Positions 28,959 through 46,174 of a stretch of DNA of 64,000 nt are shown here, piece by piece. How positions within the stretch are numbered: position 1 is the stretch's first letter; each line of letters begins with the position of its first letter. Origin of the DNA: Candidatus Goldiibacteriota bacterium (GTDB lineage Bacteria > Oederibacteriota > PGYV01 > DSYL01). The stretch is from the NCBI GenBank assembly GCA_018000835.1, contig JAGNJD010000004.1:1-64000 (forward strand), given 5' to 3'. The position numbers and the translations under genes were made by a program. The notes below the pieces were generated by a model, which was not told the DNA's origin, searched no databases, and saw only the letters and a program-made list of their open reading frames with translations.

Positions 28959-30338
28959 TTACAATATGTATTTGCTCAAATCCCTGTTTTCAATAAAATC
29001 CTTTAATTTCCCCCGGACGTATTCTTTTGTAATCTCTTTTTTTATTTTTTTACCATAAGGTGCTTCAAAAAGTATGTCTTCAAGGACCTTTTCCATTATT
29101 GTATGCAATCTTCTTGCACCGATATTTTCCATTGATTCATTAATTTCAAAAGCAATCTTTGCTATTTCAGAAATTGATTCTTCTTCAAATTGAATATTTA
29201 CGTCGTCAACGTCCAGAAGTTTCGTGTATTGCATTATCAGGGAATTTTCCGGCTCCTTTAATATGCGTTCAAAATCGGATTGACTTAAACTGGATAATTC
29301 AACCCTTATAGGAAATCTTCCCTGGAGTTCCGGAATTAAATCAGACGGCTTTGAAATGTGAAAGGCGCCTGCTGCAATGAAAAGTATATGGCCCGTATTA
29401 ACGGGACCATATCTGGTGATAACCGTAGTTCCTTCCACTATTGGAAGCAGATCCCGCTGAACCCCTTCCCTTGAAACGTCAGGGCCTGCCTGGGATTTTA
29501 CGTTTGAAGCAATTTTGTCTATCTCATCAATAAAAATTATACCCGTGTTTTCCGTCTTTTCTATCGCTTCTTTTACCACATTATCCATGTCTATCATTTT
29601 TTGTAATTCTTCCGCCCTGATTATTTCCCGTGCTTCTTTTATGGTTATCTTTTTTCTTTTTACCTTTGTCCCTGCGATTCCTTCCATCATTGACTGCATG
29701 TTTATTCCTATTTCATCCATGCCGGAACCGGCAAAAACTTCAACCATTGGCATCGATTTTTCCTTTATGTTCATCTCAACCTGCCTGTCCTCAAGTTGAC
29801 CCGATAAAAGCATCTGCTTCATCTTTTCACGGGTATCGTTAAATTGTTCTTTTTCTTCTTTTATCTTTTCAAAATCCTCTTCCATCGCAAAATTTTTCTT
29901 ATTTTGTTTAAGTGACGGCACCAGTAGGTCAAGCAGCCTTTCTTCCACAATGTCTTCCACCTTATCTTTTATTCCCTCCATATATTCTTCCTTTACCATA
30001 TTTACGCTTATCTTCACAAGATCCCTTATCATTGATTCCACGTCCCTGCCAACGTAACCCACCTCAGTATATTTGGATGCTTCCACTTTTAAAAAAGGTG
30101 CTCTTACAATTTTTGCAAGGCGTCTTGCGATTTCCGTTTTACCCACGCCGGTAGGGCCTATCATCAGAATGTTTTTAGGTATAACCTCTTCCTGCAAATC
30201 CTTTGGAAGCCTCTGCCGTCTTATTCTATTGCGGAGGGTAACGGCAACTGCTTTTTTGGCAGCATCCTGCCCTACGATAAATTTATCAAGCATCTCTACT
30301 ATTTGTTTTGGTGTTAATTCTGAATTTTGTTCTCTCAT
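28959..30338 (-). CDS. hslU: ATP-dependent protease ATPase subunit HslU
   Basis: 459 residues, full length. AAA+ unfoldase of the HslUV protease: Walker [16 protein letters not shown] near residue 57, the helical I-domain in the middle (about 110-240), Walker [13 protein letters not shown], sensor region and the C-terminal tail DLSKYIL, which docks into HslV in known structures. The N-terminal [17 protein letters not shown] is typical. Overlaps the hslV stop by 4 bp, so subunits are translationally coupled. It unfolds cytoplasmic substrates and feeds them to HslV. Confidence 0.97.
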
Positions 30339-30868
30339 ATTTCCTCCAGAGTAATGTTGTCATTCGTATAAATACATATATCTGCGGCAATTTTAAGAGA
30401 TTCTACCACGATTTCTCTTGCTGATTTTTCAGTAAATTTAATCATAGCCCTTGCAGCGGCAAGTGCATAGGCACCGCCGGAACCAATTGCAATTATGCCA
30501 TCTTCCGGTTCTATCACTTCTCCGTTGCCGGATAAGATGTACGAACTTTCCTTATCTGCAACTGCCATTATTGCTTCAAGTCGTCTTAAAATTTTATCCG
30601 TCCTCCAGTCCTTTGCAAGTTCAACTGCTGCTCTCTGCAACTGCCAGTTATGTTCCTTTAATTTTTCCTCAAATTTTTCGAACAAAGTAAAAGCATCTGC
30701 AACAGAGCCGGCAAAGCCCGCAAGAACTTTGTTTTTACCTTCTATTACCCTTACCTTTTTCGCCGTCTTTTTCATTACTGTATTTTCGAGAGTAACCTGT
30801 CCGTCTCCGCCAATTACGACATGTTTATCTCTTCTAACGCATAAAATTGTAGTTCCATGAAAAACCAT
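30335..30868 (-). CDS. hslV: ATP-dependent protease peptidase subunit HslV
   Basis: 177 residues from ATG 30868, preceded by GGAGGTATTT; a start eight codons earlier exists but lacks a site and is non-conserved. The peptide MVFHG is removed to expose the catalytic N-terminal threonine of [21 protein letters not shown]. Other family marks: [18 protein letters not shown] and [29 protein letters not shown]. Forms a dodecameric peptidase in the cytoplasm with HslU. First gene of the hslVU unit, with a likely promoter 70 nt upstream. Confidence 0.97.
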
Positions 30869-30936
30869 AAATACCTCCATATATAAATACATGTTTTTTT
30901 TACGTTATTTTAGCATTTTCATTAATTAAGAAACAC

Positions 30937-32415: not shown

Positions 32416-35400
32416 CTAAATTTTCAATTCTTTTCTGATTTTCTCTTGTTTTTCTGCAACCCTTGCTGCCTGCAGGCAAAACGCCTCAAACCGTGCTTCA
32501 ATTATCTGCGTCCATGGATTACCATCAGCCTCTATGGTCAAAAATGGTATTCTGTCATTTTTTTTGAATCCATTTTCCTTTATTTTTTCTCCTGCAAACT
32601 TATATGCTTCCATTTTTGAATTCATATCGAGAATATTATTTGCGATGGATTCGGTAAATCTTACAGGCATACATGAAAAAGGTCCAATATTTACTATACC
32701 TGCATATTTTGTAAAAATATCGCGCAGCATAGTTCCTATTATCATTCCAGGTTCACCTTTTAAATCTTTTGGTAAAATGTGTTTGGAATATCTCATTATA
32801 TCCTCAATGTCAACAAGTTCTATTTCATAAAGGCCGGATTCTGCCAGAATGTTTTTTATCTTTTTTTCCATTCTCTTCTGCACGACATCAGATATATAAA
32901 ACTCCATCCATCCCATAAAGTTATAATTTGGAATATGAAGTTTGTTATTTATCATATAAGTCAGATAATAAATCCACTCAGAAAGGTGCAAAACACGCGG
33001 AACAAAACCACGTTTTGCAAGACGTCTTGCAAGGTCCTTGTTTGAAAAAGAATCCCTGCGGACAAAAATTTCACCCATAATTGCAATCTGGGGAGCGTCT
33101 TTTAGTTTCATTTTTAACGGAATTTCGCCAAGCCTTTTTGAAGTCAGTTTTAACTGCTGATAAAAATCAGCCTGTGATAGTCCATCAATGGACAACGTTA
33201 ATTTATCAACCTCTTCGTTAAAAATGTCTTCTGCCTGTTTTGTATCTTTTGCCAGCGCCCATAAAGTATTTCTGATGTCGTCCAGAACGTCGCCTGCAAC
33301 GATTGCACGCCATGCATTTATGGTAAACCGGGTACCAAGTCCTGCATATTTTTCTTCGTTTGCCAGGGAAAGCAGTGCGACGTCTTTTATCTTTCTTTCT
33401 TTTATAAGCATGTTCATAAAAACGTGATACTGCCCAAGACGGCAATATCCGGCAGCGCGCGGCTGGAATATTACGAGTTTTTCATTTTTATCTTTTCTGT
33501 GTTTTAAATACTTTATCATTGACCCGACGCATAAAATCATAGGCAGACACTCTTTCCCTGTCGTAACGGTTCTCCCGCATCGCAGGGTTTCCTTGTCGGA
33601 AACGCCCATCCAGTGAGCGTTTATTCCGGCCCTCCTTAAAGCCGCTGCAAATAATTGCGTTGAAACGTCTCCCATAGAAGGCATTATCATTTTTATTCGG
33701 GGATCTTTTAACGACATTTTTTCGCCGTTTGAATCAATAAAATACATCATTGATTTTTCAACCACGACTTTTGCAGGAGTAAAATCATGCTTTACGGGTT
33801 TCGACTCTGACGGCACTTTGTTGATTTCAAGGTAATTCTTTATGACGTCTATAAACGCCTCAACCCGCGTGTCAATTCCCGCATCTGCGGTATGACTGTC
33901 AATTTCAAGAGTTAAATTTGGTTTTTCTTTCATAATTTTTCTGAAATAAGTTACAAGAAAAGAATCCATGGCACATAAAAAATTAGTTATATATACGCCA
34001 AAAAGTTGCTTGTCTTTTTTTACCATCTGGGCTGCACGTATTATTTTTTGTCCCATCTCCCAGTGCATGTAATCATCGTGTGGTTCGTCAATAACCTCGT
34101 CGTCGGATGGAAGCAGGTCAAAAGGAATAATTGTATATCCGCGACTGCTTATTTTTTTGGGAATGCCTTTGTTCGTATCGTCCGACAATGCATTATGCGG
34201 AGGGCCAAAGAGGACTATTGCTATTTTTGACGGGTCTTTATGCAATTCATCGAGAAATTTTCTGCCGATTTTCTTTTTCTCCTGTCTGTATTCGTATTGT
34301 ATTACAACTGCATCATCAAATGCTTTTGCTGATTCTTTTTTATTAAATCCAAGTTTTTCCCCGATCTTTACAAATTTATCTTTTTCTTTTTCGTATCCAT
34401 TTCTGAAATTAAGTGTTGGCGAAATTATTCTGTCCTTTGATACTTTATCTTTAAATATCTGTTGCATCCAGAATGCCTCGCCCTGGACAAAAATGCAGGT
34501 TGATGAAAATTCCTTTCTGTCGTTACCCTTTACCACATACATCTCTTCAGTATGCGGCATAAAATAAAAATCCGGATTTTTATCCGATAAATCCTCAAAA
34601 AGTCCGATTGCAACCTGGGCAGGAAAACAAAACGACGTTGTCTGTCTGTATGCGGATTTTTCGTTTACTTTATCCGGTAATACGACGTTACACCCGAGAT
34701 TCCTGAAAAAATTATAATAAAGAGGAAAAACCTGATATGCTATGAAACTCTTGTTTATTCCTATGGAAGGAGCTCCTGCTTTTACTTTTAACGGCGGGCA
34801 ATACTTCGTAAAGGCGAGTTCGTTTCTTAACTTTACGTAATCCATCTTTTCTGCATCAACGTTCATCTTATATCTGACATTGTAATATTTGTTGCACGCA
34901 CCGCCAAACGGATATACGCTATCTCCTATCCTTATCATATTAATGCTGCATTTTAAATCGCATTTTTCCTTTCCACCGGCGCATATAAACGGCTTTTCAT
35001 ATATAACTTCCCTTTCTATCAATTCCTTTAAATTAAAATTCTGCTCCTTAAGCAATCCGAGGTTTATCCTTTTTTTAACCTCAAGTGCCACTCCAAAAGC
35101 GCCCATCAGACCGGGGGCAGGCGGGACGATGATTGGTTTGTTAATTATGGCGGCCATTGCAAGCGGAACTGCTTTATTGTAGCAGACGCCGCCCTGCATA
35201 AAAATTTTATTCCCTATCTGCCTGTTTCCTTTTACCCTGTTTGAATAATTAAAACATATTGAATAAACCAGCCCTGCGAGTATGTCATTTTGTGATATGC
35301 CTTCATGCGTTGCCATTTTTATGTCTGACGAAATAAATGCAGCACACTGGTCGTTAAAATTAGGCGGTTCCGTTGCCTGCAATGCAAATTCTGCAATGTC

Positions 35401-36738
35401 CCTGTAATCAACGTTTAGGGATTCCTTTGCTGCCTCTTCCAGGAAAGAACCTGTGCCCGCAGAGCATGCCTCGTTCATTGCATAATCAGATGCAACGCCG
35501 TTTGTTATGTGCGTATATTTTGCATCCTGACCGCCGATTTCAAAAATCGTATCAACCTCAGGGTCAAAATACACGGCAGCAGATGCATGTGCTATTATCT
35601 CATTTATAATTCCATCCGTTAAGGTAAAAAGCCCTGCAATCTGTCGTCCGGAACCGGTTACGCCTATGCCTGTTATTTCCACGTTTTTGTCTTTTATGTT
35701 ATTATAGATTGCCTCATAACACTTTCTTGATGCTTCTATAGGATTGCCGTTCGTTCTTAAATAAACAGAAGTTAATATTACGTCGTCGTCCGTCCTCATC
35801 AGAACCGCTTTTGTAGTCGTAGAACCAACGTCGAGCCCTATTATGCATTTATTATACTGATTAAACTGTCCGTGTTTTGACTCGTGAAAGGTAACGAGGT
35901 TTTCTGCATTTTTAAGAGGTGGCAGACGCGGAAAACTCGTCTCCCCCGGCTTAAATAACTCATCCTTTACTTTCTCCCCTTTGGTAAATGAGAGAATCGC
36001 AGTGCCAAGTGCTTCAAAATAAGGTGCCTCCTCAGGCACCGTAACGTCCTTTATCTCCTGCTTTACGTATTTCATTACTATTTTATTTAATGCTGTGCCG
36101 CCCGCGATCATCACTTTTTTATATGGAATCTTTTTTATGAGTTCTATGAGTTTCTCTGCTATCATTTTGCACAAACCCGATGCAATATTTGCAATCGGGA
36201 CGCCTTTGTTTAATGCATGCGTGCAGTCAGACTTGCAAAAAACAGAACATCTTCCTGATACCCTGTATGGTTCTGCGTGCTCTGCAATTTTCATTGCTTC
36301 GTCAAGAGTTAAATCCATCCTTTTTAACTGTTGTAAAAAGAATTCACCGGTGCCGGATGCACATTTGTTACCGGTTGAAATCCCGGTTATTTTTAAATTA
36401 TCGTCCAGCCTGTAAACGATGAAAGTTTCACCGCCGGCAGAAACCAGGACGTCGTATTTATCCTTTTTCTTTACAATGTATTGCAATGCTGCTTCATCCG
36501 CCTCTGCCTCGGTAATTGAGGGAAGATTAACGAAATTCTTAAAACGTCTCCCTGTAACATGCACGGGAAAATCCCTTGTGTCCAGTTCTCTTAAAACTTC
36601 TTCATATATTTTTTTGGGATTGCCTTCATGTTCTTTTCTTATTACCTTTGTAATCCTGTAAGAATCTTCTGTTTTTTCCAGTTCAACGGCTGAAATGGTA
36701 GAAGCACCTAAACATATACCATAAGATTTCTGTTCCAT
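32416..36738 (-). CDS. Large acyl-CoA dehydratase activase-related fusion protein (2x BadF/BcrA ATPase + DUF2229 + HgdB-like)
   Basis: 1440 residues. Two tandem BadF/BadG/BcrA/BcrD (ASKHA-fold) ATPase units lie at about 5-270 and 300-580; the second has the classic IIGLDVGSTTTKAVL, IFEIGGQDAKY and NEACSAGTGSFLEE. Cluster-type cysteines appear in GRCSVFCKSDC and NDQCAAF. Then come a DUF2229 region (about 660-900) and a region like the dehydratase B subunit (about 1000-1420). Members resemble the ATP-driven, [4Fe-4S] activators that inject a low-potential electron into 2-hydroxyacyl-CoA dehydratases or benzoyl-CoA reductase. The substrate of these giant fusions is not established. GAGGAGC precedes the ATG. 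Confidence 0.9.
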   Translation of the reverse strand: MEQKSYGICLGASTISAVELEKTEDSYRITKVIRKEHEGNPKKIYEEVLRELDTRDFPVHVTGRRFKNFVNLPSITEAEADEAALQYIVKKKDKYDVLVSAGGETFIVYRLDDNLKITGISTGNKCASGTGEFFLQQLKRMDLTLDEAMKIAEHAEPYRVSGRCSVFCKSDCTHALNKGVPIANIASGLCKMIAEKLIELIKKIPYKKVMIAGGTALNKIVMKYVKQEIKDVTVPEEAPYFEALGTAILSFTKGEKVKDELFKPGETSFPRLPPLKNAENLVTFHESKHGQFNQYNKCIIGLDVGSTTTKAVLMRTDDDVILTSVYLRTNGNPIEASRKCYEAIYNNIKDKNVEITGIGVTGSGRQIAGLFTLTDGIINEIIAHASAAVYFDPEVDTIFEIGGQDAKYTHITNGVASDYAMNEACSAGTGSFLEEAAKESLNVDYRDIAEFALQATEPPNFNDQCAAFISSDIKMATHEGISQNDILAGLVYSICFNYSNRVKGNRQIGNKIFMQGGVCYNKAVPLAMAAIINKPIIVPPAPGLMGAFGVALEVKKRINLGLLKEQNFNLKELIEREVIYEKPFICAGGKEKCDLKCSINMIRIGDSVYPFGGACNKYYNVRYKMNVDAEKMDYVKLRNELAFTKYCPPLKVKAGAPSIGINKSFIAYQVFPLYYNFFRNLGCNVVLPDKVNEKSAYRQTTSFCFPAQVAIGLFEDLSDKNPDFYFMPHTEEMYVVKGNDRKEFSSTCIFVQGEAFWMQQIFKDKVSKDRIISPTLNFRNGYEKEKDKFVKIGEKLGFNKKESAKAFDDAVVIQYEYRQEKKKIGRKFLDELHKDPSKIAIVLFGPPHNALSDDTNKGIPKKISSRGYTIIPFDLLPSDDEVIDEPHDDYMHWEMGQKIIRAAQMVKKDKQLFGVYITNFLCAMDSFLVTYFRKIMKEKPNLTLEIDSHTADAGIDTRVEAFIDVIKNYLEINKVPSESKPVKHDFTPAKVVVEKSMMYFIDSNGEKMSLKDPRIKMIMPSMGDVSTQLFAAALRRAGINAHWMGVSDKETLRCGRTVTTGKECLPMILCVGSMIKYLKHRKDKNEKLVIFQPRAAGYCRLGQYHVFMNMLIKERKIKDVALLSLANEEKYAGLGTRFTINAWRAIVAGDVLDDIRNTLWALAKDTKQAEDIFNEEVDKLTLSIDGLSQADFYQQLKLTSKRLGEIPLKMKLKDAPQIAIMGEIFVRRDSFSNKDLARRLAKRGFVPRVLHLSEWIYYLTYMINNKLHIPNYNFMGWMEFYISDVVQKRMEKKIKNILAESGLYEIELVDIEDIMRYSKHILPKDLKGEPGMIIGTMLRDIFTKYAGIVNIGPFSCMPVRFTESIANNILDMNSKMEAYKFAGEKIKENGFKKNDRIPFLTIEADGNPWTQIIEARFEAFCLQAARVAEKQEKIRKELKI

Positions 36739-36771
36739 TTTCTTTGCTCCTCATAATTTTATTATAAATAT

Positions 36772-36799
36772 AATATAACACTTTTTTTGTTTTTTTCAA
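36772..36799 (-). promoter_or_regulatory. Candidate promoter of the activase gene
   Basis: On the minus strand TTGAAA (36794-36799) and TATATT (36772-36777) are 16 bp apart, with GAGGAGC and the ATG about 35 nt downstream. Confidence 0.5.
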
Positions 36800-36825
36800 T
36801 AAAATATGGACTGCTTGTTATTTAA

Positions 36826-37363
36826 GAATTAAAAGTGGACACCTCTTTTAGCCGTATAATTAAGGCAAAAAGGAGGTGTCTTATGGCACAACTGCACAAG
36901 AAGTTCACGGAAGAGCAGGTGAAAGATCTTTTAACCCGGTATTCCAAAGGAGAGATTGAAAGAAAATATTTACAAGAAATAATGGGTATTGGAAAATCAA
37001 GATTCTTTGCATTGGTAAAGGAATACAGGAAAAATCCAGAACATTTTTCAATACAGTATGAAAGGACAGACAGAACACGACAGATTTATCTGAAAATTGA
37101 AAAAAACATCCTAAAAGAATTAACAGAAGAGAAAAAACTGATAGACAATAATGATATGCCAATCAAAAACTATAACTACAGTTATATAAGGGATATATTG
37201 CACGTTGCAGAAAGCAAAAGAAGGATATGCATCACTGTGAAACACAAAAATAATGCAAGATAAAAGGTGTTTACGCGTAAAAATAAACTAAAATTTAATA
37301 GAAGCATGCAGACAATTTATTAAGAAAAAATGCAACAATCCTTTTATTTAATTAACCGGGCAG
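36826..37363 (+). mobile_element. Internally deleted insertion sequence remnant
   Basis: The left side AAAAGTGGACACCTCTTTTAG precedes a transposase start; the right side has AGGTGTTTACGCGT, AGAAGCATGCAGACAATTTATTAAG and ends ...AACAATCC...TTAACCGGGCAG. The right side matches, in order, sequences at 53600-53710 and, in part, at 47440-47529 and 23930-23978. Left inverted repeat could not be identified. The boundaries are therefore approximate. Confidence 0.6.
36883..37263 (+). pseudogene. Truncated IS transposase, N-terminal HTH part only
   Basis: 126 residues from ATG 36883, which has a strong AAAAGGAGGTGTCTT site; a start 16 codons earlier lacks one. The N-terminal half is a helix-turn-helix DNA-binding region (KGEIERKYLQEIMGIGKSRF) followed by a basic linker (YERTDRTRQIYLKIEKN). 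The DDE/integrase catalytic core expected after residue 110 is absent; instead the frame continues into a short tail KRRICITVKHKNNAR. An almost identical tail (RRRICITVRHKK) is readable at 47449-47490, so the tail belongs to the element family. I infer an internal deletion. It is one of only two plus-strand protein frames I accept here. Confidence 0.7.
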
Positions 37364-37473
37364 TAATATGTTCCACCAAAAAAGAAGTGATTGAAATTCT
37401 GATGATTAAAAATTTTTATTATATATAATTTGCAGTAAAGCAATGTTTTAATATTAACTTTATATTACATAAG

Positions 37474-38601
37474 TTATTTATATATTTGTGTCCATTCATT
37501 TCTGTTCATAGTATTCCCTGTCCCCAACTCACCTTCATAATTATTTCCAGCCACCCATAATGTCCCATCCGTCTTTAATATCAAACTATGACTCCAGCCT
37601 GCTGACATAGATTTCACACCTGTTAATACCTGCGTCCATGTGTTTTTATCTGCATTATCTTCTGTCCCCAACTGACCGAAATAATTATCTCCTGTTGCCC
37701 ATAACGTCCCATCCGTCTTTAACGCAAAACTATTATAATAGCCAGCTGATACAAACTGCACGTCTGTTAATACCTGCGTCCATGTGTTTTTATCTGCATT
37801 ATCCCCTGCCCCTAACTGACCGTAATAATTATCTCCTGTTGCCCATAACGTCCCATCCGTCTTTAACGCGAAACTATGATATCCACCAGCTGATACAGAT
37901 TGCACACCTGTTAATACCTGCGTCCACGTGTTTTTATCTGCATTATTTCCTGTCCCCAACTGACCATCATAATTATCTCCTGTTGCAAATAATGTCCCGT
38001 CCGCTTTTAGCGCTAAACTATGATATCCACCGGCTGATACAGATTGCATACCAGTTAATACCTGCGTCCATATGTTTTTATTCACATTATCTCCTGTCCC
38101 TAACTCACCATCATAATTATATCCAGACACCCATAATGTCCCATCCGTCTTTAGTGCTAAACTATGAGAAGAGCCTGCTGATACAAACTGCACACCTGTT
38201 AATACCTGCCTCAACGTATATTTTCGTGTATTATTTCCTGTCCCTAATTCTCCTTCATAATTATTTCCAGCCCCCCATAATGTCCCATCCGTCTTTAATA
38301 TCAAACTATGACTCCTGCCTGCTGACATAGATTTCACACCTGTTAATACCTGCGTCCATGTGTTTTTATTTACATTATCTCCTGTCCCTAACTGACCATC
38401 ATAATTATATCCTGTTGCAAATAATGTTCCATCTGCCTTCAGTGCTAAACTATAACTTTTGCCTGCTGATACAGAACTCACGATAAAAGGTGCTGGTATA
38501 TACACGGCCTCATTTGGTGCTGTTGTTGTATCTTTTTTCGTGCATGAAAAAATTCCAAAACAAATAAAAATCCCTATCATAATTCCTGTCGTCCTTTTCA
38601 T
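37474..38601 (-). CDS. RCC1-repeat lipoprotein, copy 1 of 3
   Basis: 375 residues. A lipoprotein signal peptide with lipobox (GIFICFGIFSC, Cys20) is followed by a short TTTAPNEAVYIPAP spacer and seven RCC1 repeats of about 48 residues, each with an SAGxxHSLALKxDGTL strand and a GxNYxGQLGTGDN turn, ending RNEWTQIYK. Seven repeats are what an RCC1 seven-bladed propeller needs. The protein should be a lipid-anchored, extracytoplasmic propeller; ligand unknown. Nearly identical genes follow upstream at 38677 and 39883. The last repeat here resembles repeat 2 (NNYEGELGTGN), unlike the last repeat in the other copies. AAAGGAGAAAAAATG is the start context. Confidence 0.9.
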   Translation of the reverse strand: MKRTTGIMIGIFICFGIFSCTKKDTTTAPNEAVYIPAPFIVSSVSAGKSYSLALKADGTLFATGYNYDGQLGTGDNVNKNTWTQVLTGVKSMSAGRSHSLILKTDGTLWGAGNNYEGELGTGNNTRKYTLRQVLTGVQFVSAGSSHSLALKTDGTLWVSGYNYDGELGTGDNVNKNIWTQVLTGMQSVSAGGYHSLALKADGTLFATGDNYDGQLGTGNNADKNTWTQVLTGVQSVSAGGYHSFALKTDGTLWATGDNYYGQLGAGDNADKNTWTQVLTDVQFVSAGYYNSFALKTDGTLWATGDNYFGQLGTEDNADKNTWTQVLTGVKSMSAGWSHSLILKTDGTLWVAGNNYEGELGTGNTMNRNEWTQIYK

Positions 38602-38676
38602 TTTTTCTCCTTTTTTACTATTTTATTTAACTTTGACTATGCCTTACTTTATTAAATTAACTTTATATTACACAGG

Positions 38677-39807
38677 TTATTTATATATTTGTGTCCACTC
38701 ATTTCTATACATAGTATCTCCTGTCCCTAACTGACTAGATTCATTATCCCCCGTTACCCATAATGTCCCATCCGTCTTTATCGCAAAACTATTATAATAG
38801 CCAGCTGATACAAACTGCACGTCTGTTAATACCTGCGTCCATGTGTTTTTATCTACATTATCTCCTGTCCCCAACTGACCGTAATAATTATCTCCTGTTG
38901 CCCATAACGTCCCATCCGTCTTTAACGCTAAACTATGATAATAGCCGGCTGATACAGACTGCACACCTGTTAATACCTGTGTCCATATGTTTTTATTTAC
39001 ATTATCCCCTGTCCCTAACTGACCATTATAATTATATCCCGTTACCCATAATGTCCCATCCGTCTTTAATGCTAAACTATGATAATAGCCGGCTGATACA
39101 GACTGCACACCTGTTAATACCGGCGTCCATGTGTTTTTATCTGCATTACCTCCTGTCCCTAACTGACCATTATAATTATTCCCTGTTGCAAATAATGTCC
39201 CATCCGTCTTTAACGCTAAACTATGACTTCCGCCTGCTGATACAGATTGCACACCTGTTAATACCGGTGTCCATATGTTTTTATTTACATTATCCCCTGT
39301 CCCTAACTGACCATTATAATTATATCCTGTTACAAATAATGTCCCATTCATCTTTATTAGTACTAAACTATGACTTCCACCTGCTGACATAGATTTCACA
39401 TCCGTTAATACCTGTCTCAATGTATATTTTTGTGTATTATTTCCTGTCCCTAATTCTCCTTCATAATTATTTCCAGCCCCCCATAATGTCCCATCCGTCT
39501 TTAATACCAAACTATAACTCCAGCCTGCTGACATAGATTTCACACCTGTTAATACCTGCGTCCATGTGTTTTTGTCTGCATTATCCCCTGTCATTAACTG
39601 GCCATAATAATTATTTCCTGTTACCCATAACGTCCCATCCGATTTCAGTGCTAAACTATGGTATCCACCTGCTGATACAGAACTCACGATAAAAGGTGCT
39701 GGTATATACACGGCCTCATTTGGTGCTGTTGTTGTATCTTTTTTCGTACATGAAAAAATTCCAAAACAAATAAAAATCCCTATTATAATTCCTGTCGCCC
39801 TTTTCAT
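38677..39807 (-). CDS. RCC1-repeat lipoprotein, copy 2 of 3
   Basis: 376 residues, same architecture as its neighbours: lipobox Cys20, TTTAPNEAV spacer and seven RCC1 repeats. The extra residue comes from repeat 3, which reads SLVLIKMNGTLFVTG instead of SLxLKTDGTLxxTG, so an Ile-Lys-Met-Asn replaces Lys-Thr-Asp. Repeats 4 and 5 carry TPV rather than TQV before the strand. The variable positions sit mainly in the GxNYxGQ turn, which in RCC1 propellers faces one rim. It is a surface lipoprotein of unknown ligand. Its terminal repeat (GDNESSQLGTGDTMYRNEWTQ) matches copy 3, not copy 1. Confidence 0.9.
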   Translation of the reverse strand: MKRATGIIIGIFICFGIFSCTKKDTTTAPNEAVYIPAPFIVSSVSAGGYHSLALKSDGTLWVTGNNYYGQLMTGDNADKNTWTQVLTGVKSMSAGWSYSLVLKTDGTLWGAGNNYEGELGTGNNTQKYTLRQVLTDVKSMSAGGSHSLVLIKMNGTLFVTGYNYNGQLGTGDNVNKNIWTPVLTGVQSVSAGGSHSLALKTDGTLFATGNNYNGQLGTGGNADKNTWTPVLTGVQSVSAGYYHSLALKTDGTLWVTGYNYNGQLGTGDNVNKNIWTQVLTGVQSVSAGYYHSLALKTDGTLWATGDNYYGQLGTGDNVDKNTWTQVLTDVQFVSAGYYNSFAIKTDGTLWVTGDNESSQLGTGDTMYRNEWTQIYK

Positions 39808-39882
39808 TTTTTCTCCTTTTTTACTATTTTATTGAACTTTAACTCTGCCTTACTTTATTAAATTAACTTTATATTACACAGG

Positions 39883-41010
39883 TTATTTATATATTTGTGT
39901 CCATTCATTTCTATACATAGTATCTCCTGTCCCTAATTGACTATATTCATTATCTCCCGTTACCCATAATGTCCCATCCGTCTTTAGTGCTAAACTATGA
40001 TAATAGCCTGCTGATACAAACTGCACGTCTGTTAATACCTGCGTCCATGTGTTTTTATTCACATTATCCCCTGCCCCTAACTGACCGTAATAATTATCTC
40101 CTGTTACCCATAATGTCCCATCCGTCTTTAACACTAAACTATGATAATAGCCGGCTGATACAAACTGCACGTCTGTTAATACCTGCGTCCATGTGTTTTT
40201 ATTTACATTATTCCCTGTCCCTAACTGACCATCATAATTATATCCTGTTGCTAATAATGTCCCATCTGCCTTTAGCACAAAACTATGATATCCACCAGCT
40301 GATACAGATTGCACATCTGTTAATACCTGCGTCCATGTGTTTTTATTTAAGTTATTTCCTGTCCCCAACTGACCATCATAATTATATCCTGTTGCTAATA
40401 ATGTCCCGTCCGCTTTTAGCGCTAAACTATGATATCCACCAGCTGATATAGATTGCACATCTGTTAATACCTGCGTCCATGTGTTTTTATCTACATTATC
40501 TCCTGTCCCTAACTCACCATATTCATTATCTCCCGTTACCCATAATGTCCCATCCGTCTTTAATATCAAACTATGACTCCTGCCTGCTGACATAGATTTC
40601 ACACCTGTTAATACCTGCCTCAACGTATATTTTCGTGCATTATTTCCTGTCCCTAATTCTCCTTCATAATTATTTCCAGCCCCCCATAATGTCCCATCCG
40701 TCTTTAATACCAAACTATAACTCCAGCCTGCTGACATAGATTTCACACCTGTTAATACCTGCGTCCATGTGTTTTTGTCTGCATTATCCCCTGTCCCTAA
40801 CTGACCATCATAATTATATCCTGTTGCTAATAATGTTCCATCTGCCTTCAGTGCTAAACTATGGTATCCACCTGCTGATACAGAACTCACGATAAAAGGT
40901 GCTGGTATATACACGGCCTCATTGGGTGCTGTTGTTGTATCTTTTTTCGTGCATGAAAAAATTCCAAAACAAATAAAAATCCCTATTATAATTCCTATCG
41001 CCCTTTTCAT
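39883..41010 (-). CDS. RCC1-repeat lipoprotein, copy 3 of 3
   Basis: 375 residues and the first of the tandem set in the direction of transcription. Signal peptide with lipobox FGIFSC, spacer TTTAPNEAV, and seven RCC1 repeats. Repeats 4 to 6 are nearly identical to one another (SLALKADGTLLATGYNYDGQ recurs), showing homogenisation within the gene. It shares the phrase KYTLRQVLTGVKSMSAG in repeat 2-3 with copies 1 and 2. Its upstream spacer differs from the ones between copies, so the promoter for the whole set may be here, between 41011 and 41079. A glycosyltransferase gene lies immediately upstream on the same strand. Confidence 0.9.
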   Translation of the reverse strand: MKRAIGIIIGIFICFGIFSCTKKDTTTAPNEAVYIPAPFIVSSVSAGGYHSLALKADGTLLATGYNYDGQLGTGDNADKNTWTQVLTGVKSMSAGWSYSLVLKTDGTLWGAGNNYEGELGTGNNARKYTLRQVLTGVKSMSAGRSHSLILKTDGTLWVTGDNEYGELGTGDNVDKNTWTQVLTDVQSISAGGYHSLALKADGTLLATGYNYDGQLGTGNNLNKNTWTQVLTDVQSVSAGGYHSFVLKADGTLLATGYNYDGQLGTGNNVNKNTWTQVLTDVQFVSAGYYHSLVLKTDGTLWVTGDNYYGQLGAGDNVNKNTWTQVLTDVQFVSAGYYHSLALKTDGTLWVTGDNEYSQLGTGDTMYRNEWTQIYK

Positions 41011-41079
41011 TTTTTCTCCTTTTATTTTATTATTTTACGATTTTGATCTGATCCCGGAAATGATTATATTATTTATCTA

Positions 41080-42129
41080 TTAAATTGTCAAAATGTATTT
41101 TTGCATTTCTTTCGTTATTTCATCCCAGTAAAATCTTTTCAAATCAATATTTTTTATTTTTTCCATTAATTCCGTGATATTGTTTTTAGCAAACAAAATT
41201 TTGTCGCATAAATCATCCCTGTCCGGTTCTGCCATAAAACCATCTCCTCCTGCATTGTCATACTGTATTTCCCCTGCTTTTGTCATTTTGCATTTTACCA
41301 GCAGCGAATTTTGTTCGTTTAAAAAGTCGCAATGTCCGCCCCAGTTGGTTGCAATAACAGGGATGCCGCAGGCAATTGCCTCAAGGTAAATCATTCCAAA
41401 ACCCTCGGCACGCGAAGGCAGCACAAAACAATCGGCATTACGCATAAGTTCTGCCATCTGTCCCTCGTCGTATTCTTCCGTTATTATTTTTATGTTTTTA
41501 GACATGGGTATTTTGCTTAAATCCACGTCATACTTTGATTTACCGGGTTTGTATGGAAATTTTATCATAAGTTCCACGTCACTTTTACTGCCAAACGTTT
41601 TTACAAAACTTTCAGCCAATACGTCTATGCCTTTTCTTTTCTGCGGCATGCATATAGACAAGAACGTAAATTTCGGGTTATTTTTACGTTCGTCTTTTTT
41701 ATAAAATATTTTTGGATTAATTCCGTATGGAACTATTTTTATCAAATCACTTCGGACGCCCGATTCAGTAAAAATTTTCCGGTTAAATTGTCCGGGTAAA
41801 AATAAAACGTCGAGACGTTCGTTTATTCTTTTTACCCATTTTTCCGGAACTTTTGTAGTTTCATAGGTAAGCATGCCTATTTTCCGTTTCGTCGTTATCA
41901 ATTTATAGTTTTCCGGGTATTCAAAAGTAAGGGTTTTGTCATGAATAAATTTTTTCTGAAGATTAAATTTTTCAGGCAGTTTAAAATCAGGATTATACAG
42001 GAATCCCCTGCGTTCATAAACGCACACGTCAACCCCGGAATTGATGAATGAATTTATTATTTCCCTGCCGATTTTTGCCCATGAAACAGGGGAACGAAGC
42101 ATGCCGAAATAATTAATGCCGTCTGCCAT
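41080..42129 (-). CDS. Glycosyltransferase family 4-type enzyme
   Basis: 349 residues of GT-B fold. The C-terminal half has the nucleotide-sugar site: FLSICMPQKRKGIDVLAES, then LMRNADCFVLPSRAEGFGMI with the E-x7-E pattern (EGFGMIYLE), and IPVIATNWGG. The N-terminal half (YFGMLRSPVSWAKIGREII) resembles GT4 members that act on glycans in cell-envelope or protein glycosylation. Cytoplasmic or inner-membrane associated. Donor and acceptor cannot be read from the sequence. It lies between ribBA and the RCC1 set, with only a weak ribosome site (GGCGGATAAGC). It may glycosylate surface polysaccharide; a link to the lipoproteins is speculation. Confidence 0.82.
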   Translation of the reverse strand: MADGINYFGMLRSPVSWAKIGREIINSFINSGVDVCVYERRGFLYNPDFKLPEKFNLQKKFIHDKTLTFEYPENYKLITTKRKIGMLTYETTKVPEKWVKRINERLDVLFLPGQFNRKIFTESGVRSDLIKIVPYGINPKIFYKKDERKNNPKFTFLSICMPQKRKGIDVLAESFVKTFGSKSDVELMIKFPYKPGKSKYDVDLSKIPMSKNIKIITEEYDEGQMAELMRNADCFVLPSRAEGFGMIYLEAIACGIPVIATNWGGHCDFLNEQNSLLVKCKMTKAGEIQYDNAGGDGFMAEPDRDDLCDKILFAKNNITELMEKIKNIDLKRFYWDEITKEMQKYILTI

Positions 42130-45776: not shown

Positions 45777-45906
45777 GGACAGGCTGATATCCTTTAAAAC
45801 GCAATAGAATAATTAAAAAAGACTGGGAATGAGGAAAGACATGGCAGACACATAAAAAGGCTGAAAATAATGAATAAAGAGGGGCCAGGGGAGATTTTAT
45901 TCTTTC

Positions 45907-45994
45907 AAATCCCCCTTTATCCCCCTTTTACAAAGGGGAAAAAAAGAAAAAGACAAATCCCCCTCTTTCCCCCTTTTTCAAAGGGGAAAAAAGA
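45907..45994. repeat. Two tandem C4-rich hairpin repeats
   Basis: Copy one AATCCCCCTTTATCCCCCTTTT...AAAGGGG at 45908-45940 and copy two AATCCCCCTCTTTCCCCC...CAAAGGGG at 45956-45987 are near-identical and each can fold CCCCTTT with AAAGGGG. No U-tract follows on either strand. The rest of the 45758-46174 gap holds nothing recognisable. Confidence 0.7.
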
Positions 45995-46174
45995 AAAAAA
46001 TCCTGACCTACCAAAAGAAATTTGTATGTTGCCTCCGATTATTCCTGACAATATGATTCACAGAGAGTATATAAATAGTGTTTACCATCTATGTCCTGCT
46101 CCCTTATTCAAACGCAGTTTATTTCACCATAGGTTTACTCGCTTCCAGCCCTGCTGTTACCGGATTTTTATGAT

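What the first reader, a model, noticed from the sequence alone, without database searches (positions are those of the whole stretch)
37474..41010. Three tandem RCC1-propeller lipoprotein genes
Three genes of 375-376 residues repeat with a 1.2-kb period and each is a lipobox plus seven RCC1 repeats. Bacterial RCC1 lipoproteins in triplicate are unusual, and the arrangement suits copy-number change and antigenic or ligand variation.
Basis: partly seen in the sequence, partly recalled or inferred. Interest (0 to 1): 0.6.

Follow-up and report, generated by a model that had tools for sequence, protein, structure and literature searches.

The report
Tandem RCC1-propeller surface lipoprotein genes
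Three neighbouring genes in an uncultured Goldbacteria species encode near-identical seven-bladed propeller lipoproteins whose differences are concentrated on one likely binding face; the genes are recent, unstable additions to the genome, but the protein type itself is already known.

Summary
Three minus-strand genes (375, 376, 375 aa; period about 1.2 kb) each have a lipobox and seven 48-aa RCC1 units. The genome belongs to Candidatus Goldiibacteriota. AlphaFold2 gives a confident closed seven-bladed propeller, closest to UVR8 and other RCC1 domains, with BLIP-II further off. The array is a species-specific addition: in two congeners the flanking genes (glycosyltransferase and BcrAD-type activase) are only about 170 bp apart. 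The same genome holds three more RCC1 lipoproteins elsewhere. Two of these are copies of one dispersed cassette with 7 and 2 blades. None of the five sites examined has a detected RCC1 gene in the other congeners' available contigs. Blades have recombined within and between the three genes. The columns that vary are those aligned with UVR8's dimer-interface residues, all on one face. The best reading is outer-membrane lipoproteins that bind a macromolecule with that face, and whose genes expand and reshuffle through their DNA repeats. Antigenic variation is not supported: no host, switch, reverse transcriptase or population data. Repetitive bacterial RCC1 propellers are a known kind; the tandem array with cross-gene blade mosaicism and site turnover is the unusual part.

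The parts
39883..41010 (-). RCC1 lipoprotein gene 1 (g1), 375 aa, seven 48-aa units
   Evidence: AlphaFold2 model mean pLDDT 91.7
38677..39807 (-). RCC1 lipoprotein gene 2 (g2), 376 aa, seven units, one residue inserted in unit 3
37474..38601 (-). RCC1 lipoprotein gene 3 (g3), 375 aa, seven units
40951..41010 (-). g1 signal peptide and lipobox, codons 1-20 (FGIFSC); the same leader in g2 at 39748-39807 and g3 at 38542-38601
   Evidence: sequence and alignment; leaders 97-98% identical, bodies 86-90%
39808..39882 (-). 75-bp spacer g1-g2 with ribosome-binding site aaggag
   Evidence: 96% identical to the g2-g3 spacer
38602..38676 (-). 75-bp spacer g2-g3
40539..40618 (-). 80-bp stretch of g1 (end of unit 2 into unit 3), identical to 38274-38353 in g3 (out of register by one unit)
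   Evidence: mosaic painting
38274..38353 (-). 80-bp stretch of g3 (end of unit 1 into unit 2), identical to 40539-40618 in g1
   Evidence: mosaic painting
37477..37611 (-). g3 unit 7: chimera of a unit-2-type front and a unit-7 tail
   Evidence: nearest unit is g3 unit 2, tail matches g1 unit 7
36739..41079 (.). species-specific segment between two conserved genes: holds the array and a small ORF; the flanking genes are about 170 bp apart in congeners G001 and G002
36883..37263 (+). 126-aa ORF of unknown family, possibly a transposase N-terminal fragment
   Evidence: no Pfam, NCBIfam or plasmid match; one degenerate relative in the genome; transposase reading is from memory only
41080..42129 (-). 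left flank: GT4-type glycosyltransferase, 70% identical in both congeners
32416..36738 (-). right flank: BcrAD/DUF2229 CoA-dehydratase-activase-like protein, 1440 aa, about 80% identical in congeners

Best explanation
The three genes encode outer-membrane (or at least membrane-anchored) lipoproteins, each a closed seven-bladed RCC1-type propeller that binds a macromolecular partner with the face formed by the GxxH turn and the long inter-blade loop, as UVR8 and BLIP-II use their propellers. The genes are a recent, accessory amplification: one gene reached this site, was duplicated in tandem, and its 144-bp blade repeats then recombined within and between copies. Leaders and spacers stayed alike while the binding faces were reshuffled. 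Shown: the predicted fold, lipobox, tandem copies, blade mosaicism, one-face variability and empty sites in congeners. Inferred: export, surface location, ligand binding, and that the diversity is useful rather than neutral.
For: Lipobox in all copies. AlphaFold2 pLDDT about 98 over the propeller, best PDB match UVR8 TM 0.87, BLIP-II TM 0.76 by target length. Variable columns 6, 7, 23, 25, 26 and 36 align with UVR8 W285/R286, D96, E43/D44 and D107, described as interface residues in PMC8748919; entropy enrichment P=0.00014 in the window units and <0.0001 in the C29 paralogue. By strand topology these turns lie on one face. Blade recombination: nearby sites less often incompatible than permuted ones, P=0.001 on 18 units, 0.05 on 21 shortened units. 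Bodies differ more than leader plus spacer, P=1e-6 for g2/g3. Empty sites and no positional orthologues. Paralogues C29 (7 blades) and C65 (2 blades) share flanks.
Against: Overall pN/pS between window units is 0.41, so most change is under constraint; an excess (pN 0.54, pS 0.20) is seen only at five columns in C29, a small sample. Face-loop variability is partly a general property of RCC1 blades and shows in the other Goldbacteria genes too. No ligand, localisation or expression data. The nearest PDB relatives by sequence and fold are mostly eukaryotic and intracellular.
Confidence: 0.6

Rival explanations
1. Neutral blade amplification: RCC1 propellers continually arise by amplification of single blades and then drift. 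The triplet and its mosaicism follow from repeat instability, with no selected diversity.
For: PMC9218822 describes this in all major propeller lineages, including RCC1/BLIP-II. Window blades are under net purifying selection. Blades of C29 mostly resemble each other. The 2-blade C65 gene looks like a deletion product.
Against: Variation is not spread evenly but sits on interface-equivalent columns. Three intact full-length copies are kept, with no frameshift.
Confidence: 0.3
2. Antigenic or phage-escape variation: a surface protein whose copies switch or recombine to evade recognition.
For: Tandem paralogues with recombining repeats and variable face loops; species-specific presence.
Against: No host known for Goldbacteria, found in hot springs, subsurface, soil and digesters (PMC7031533). 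No reverse transcriptase in the genome and no switching machinery noticed near the array. No population data.
Confidence: 0.07
3. Assembly artefact: one gene expanded, or strain variants joined in tandem.
For: The source is a fragmented 74-contig assembly with contig ends at repeats.
Against: Three distinct bodies with unit identities of 77-96%; longest exact shared stretch 157 bp; distinct intact flanks on both sides.
Confidence: 0.03

Closest known systems
Highly repetitive RCC1/BLIP-II propellers (Pereira and Lupas 2022, PMC9218822)
   Same: Near-identical blades amplified from single units, mostly in bacteria; RCC1/BLIP-II is about 10% of their set
   Different: Here three complete propeller genes stand in tandem and exchange blades; no such array is described in the passages I read
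UVR8 / RCC1 eukaryotic propellers
   Same: Fold (TM 0.87 to UVR8), blade motif GxxH, and by alignment the face used for binding
   Different: About 28% identity; here with a lipobox in a bacterium; the UVR8 tryptophans are not conserved, so no photoreceptor claim
BLIP-II (beta-lactamase inhibitory protein II)
   Same: Secreted bacterial RCC1-like seven-bladed propeller that binds a protein very tightly (PMC6121496)
   Different: BLIP-II has three-stranded blades and inhibits beta-lactamase (PMC6121496); it has no lipid anchor (general knowledge). No such target is indicated here
BPP43_05035, propeller lipoprotein adhesin of Brachyspira (PMC11444514)
   Same: Surface lipoprotein made of a propeller that binds cell-surface ligands (N-glycans)
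   Different: Six-bladed sialidase-like propeller, not RCC1; a works-like analogy only

Membership tests
RCC1 repeat / RCC1-like propeller (PF00415, PF13540, PF25390) | Profile match above curated cut-off with about seven repeats | tested here: met
   all three genes above cut-off for all three models; 7 units each
RCC1 repeat / RCC1-like propeller (PF00415, PF13540, PF25390) | Closed seven-bladed propeller fold | tested here: met
   prediction only: AlphaFold2 mean pLDDT 91.7, pTM 0.86; UVR8 TM 0.87
Bacterial lipoprotein | Signal peptide with lipobox and cysteine | tested here: met
   IFSC at residues 17-20 after a charged and hydrophobic leader; read by eye, no signal-peptide predictor was available
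Bacterial lipoprotein | Lipidation and membrane anchoring of the product | not testable with these tools
   needs labelling or fractionation
BLIP-II | Three-stranded blades | tested here: not met
   the model has four strands per blade
BLIP-II | Beta-lactamase inhibition | not testable with these tools
   no assay
UVR8 photoreceptor | Tryptophans at the W233, W285 and W337 positions | tested here: not met
   these align to column 6, which holds G, Y, W, R, K or S; W in only 2 of 17 full-length units, and in g3 unit 7
Diversity-generating retroelement target | Reverse transcriptase in the genome | tested here: not met
   no PF00078 match in the 94.5% complete genome
Phase or antigenic variation system | Allelic variation within a population | not tested
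   no strain or read data available

The most novel reading that the evidence does not exclude
A self-diversifying binding repertoire: tandem and dispersed propeller lipoprotein genes that trade single blades by recombination, so that combinations of face residues change while scaffold and leader are held constant, comparable in logic to variable leucine-rich-repeat receptors but built on an RCC1 propeller.
Probability: 0.18. Interest if true: 0.7.

Novelty: new member of a known kind. Interest (0 to 1): 0.42.

Why it matters
If the face variation is selected, this is a natural, genome-readable example of combinatorial blade shuffling in a rigid propeller, seen in progress between gene copies. 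It also marks a fast-turnover surface gene family in an uncultured phylum. If neutral, it is a clear case of the blade amplification already described.

Tried and rejected
Reverse-transcriptase (DGR) mechanism: none in the genome. Phage origin: RCC1 proteins exist in 98 phage and 73 plasmid records, all below 60% identity, and no viral contig encodes a close relative. Functional link with the BcrAD/DUF2229 gene: both genomic copies lie beside an RCC1 gene, but the congener sites lack RCC1 and in G003 and G007 the two genes are on different contigs, so I treat it as coincidence or shared insertion-prone sites. Transposase identity of the ORF at 36883-37263: no family match, left open. An alignment with wrong coordinates was redone. 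A literature search for UVR8 GWRHT wording found nothing; another search gave PMC8748919.

Full report
What is there. On the minus strand, three ORFs of 375, 376 and 375 aa follow one another at 39883-41010, 38677-39807 and 37474-38601. I call them g1, g2 and g3 in order of transcription. Each begins with a charged and hydrophobic leader ending in a lipobox (GIFSC, cysteine 20). Seven units of 48 aa follow, with one 49-aa unit in g2. All RCC1 Pfam models match far above their cut-offs, and the 144-bp DNA period is strong. The two 75-bp spacers are 96% identical.

Organism. The window lies in contig C51 of a 2.3-Mb, 74-contig, 94.5% complete genome. A contig of its closest relative, G001, has the same length and gene as JAOAIN010000112.1, Candidatus Goldiibacteriota isolate SKW91, so the window is from that phylum. 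Published Goldbacteria come from hot springs, subsurface, soil and digesters (PMC7031533).

The family in the genome and phylum. The genome has six RCC1 lipoprotein genes at four loci: the triplet, C29 (7 blades), C47 (7 blades) and C65 (2 blades). G001 has at least five, on separate contigs; some of these lie near contig ends, so tandem copies there could be hidden. Nine of 45 phylum genomes have a match, mostly within the order. Outside the phylum similar propellers are common, usually as parts of larger proteins. This scan used a crude motif and is a sample, not a census.

Fold. AlphaFold2 with a 20-sequence alignment gives mean pLDDT 91.7, about 98 over the propeller. The best solved match is UVR8 (TM 0.87), then RPGR, HERC and RCC1 domains; BLIP-II scores TM 0.76 by target length. 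The strand order puts the GxxH turn (columns 5-8) and the long inter-blade loop (22-36) on one face, and the two other turns on the opposite face; this is a topological inference, as no coordinates were at hand.

Where it varies. In the window's 17 full-length units, entropy is higher on the first face (P=0.02); in C29 much more so (P=0.0002). The sequence alignment with UVR8 places columns 6, 7, 23, 25, 26 and 36 at W285, R286, D96, E43, D44 and D107. PMC8748919 describes the salt bridges R286-D96/D107 and R338-E43/D44 near W285 at UVR8's dimer interface; the numbering was checked. Mean entropy there is 1.47 bits against 0.47 elsewhere in the window (P=0.00014), and 1.79 against 0.27 in C29. 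I picked several of these columns after seeing the variability, so the P values are optimistic; their match to independently known interface residues is the stronger point. Other Goldbacteria genes show the same trend, so it is partly a general feature of RCC1 blades. Selection is not proven: window units overall have pN/pS 0.41, and only C29's face columns show pN above pS.

Recombination. Blades match blades at other positions in other genes: an 80-bp exact stretch links the start of g1 unit 3 to the start of g3 unit 2, and g3 unit 7 joins a unit-2-type front to a unit-7 tail. A compatibility test over 18 units gives P=0.001, and 0.05 over 21 shortened units. Leaders and spacers are far more alike than bodies (6 of 201 against 139 of 1002 differences for g2/g3, P=1e-6). 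At third codon positions alone the leader-body contrast is weaker (P 0.03 to 0.2). Recombination between blades, with the ends kept alike, is the simplest reading.

Turnover. In congeners G001 and G002 the glycosyltransferase and the BcrAD-like gene that flank the array are about 170 bp apart, with no RCC1 gene between them. The C47 site in G001 holds a small ORF (DUF559-like, from memory) and repeats instead. G001's mutS-adjacent RCC1 gene is absent from that site in G000 and G002. No RCC1 gene was found near the C29 or C65 neighbours in either congener, within the contig lengths available. G002 is only 61% complete. C29 and C65 share 185 bp upstream (82%) and about 490 bp downstream (87%) but differ in blade number, 7 against 2. 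They are dispersed copies of one cassette. How the cassettes move is unknown.

Explanation. The lipobox, predicted fold and one-face variability point to anchored binding proteins. By analogy with UVR8, RCC1 and BLIP-II, the variable face is the binding surface. The ligand could be a polysaccharide, a neighbour's protein or a self partner; nothing here decides. The repeats explain how copies and blades multiply. Whether the resulting variety is selected remains open, and neutral amplification (PMC9218822) is the main rival. Antigenic variation is not supported.

Assembly. Three different bodies are unlikely to come from one gene. The longest exact match between genes is 157 bp. Extra identical copies could have collapsed, so three is a minimum.

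Verdict. A real, accurately described feature; a known kind of protein in an unusual, unstable arrangement; moderate interest.

Noticed in passing
genome G000, 48 copies; window 45824-45844 (-): Dispersed repeat ending in CCATGTCTWTCCTTATTCCCA, 48 copies at up to 3 mismatches with none of the reversed control. About ten contigs start or end some 105 bp from it, and in many copies a TTGACA-like promoter follows about 17 bp after its end. Copies flank RCC1 genes C29 and C65 as direct repeats. Nature unknown.
   Followed up: partly
L011:6977-7318 (+): A 113-aa ORF beside the C65 RCC1 gene is itself part of a dispersed repeat found in several loci, including the end of the window's contig (L180).
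   Followed up: partly
G000 C47 and C51; window 32416-36738: Both DUF2229/BcrAD-like genes of the genome lie beside an RCC1 lipoprotein gene, although not in relatives.
   Followed up: partly
window 45906-45998; L164 6784-7718: Repeats of the AAATCCCCCTTTATCCCCCTTT type; in G001 they surround a small DUF559-like ORF at the site where G000 has an RCC1 gene.
   Followed up: no
window 37638-38330 (+), 38763-39392 (+), 39969-40451 (+): Long open frames antisense to the RCC1 genes (160-230 aa); likely a by-product of the stop-free repeat, not genes.
   Followed up: no
window 28962-30892 (-): Proteasome-fold peptidase with an AAA ATPase next to it, an HslVU-like pair.
   Followed up: no
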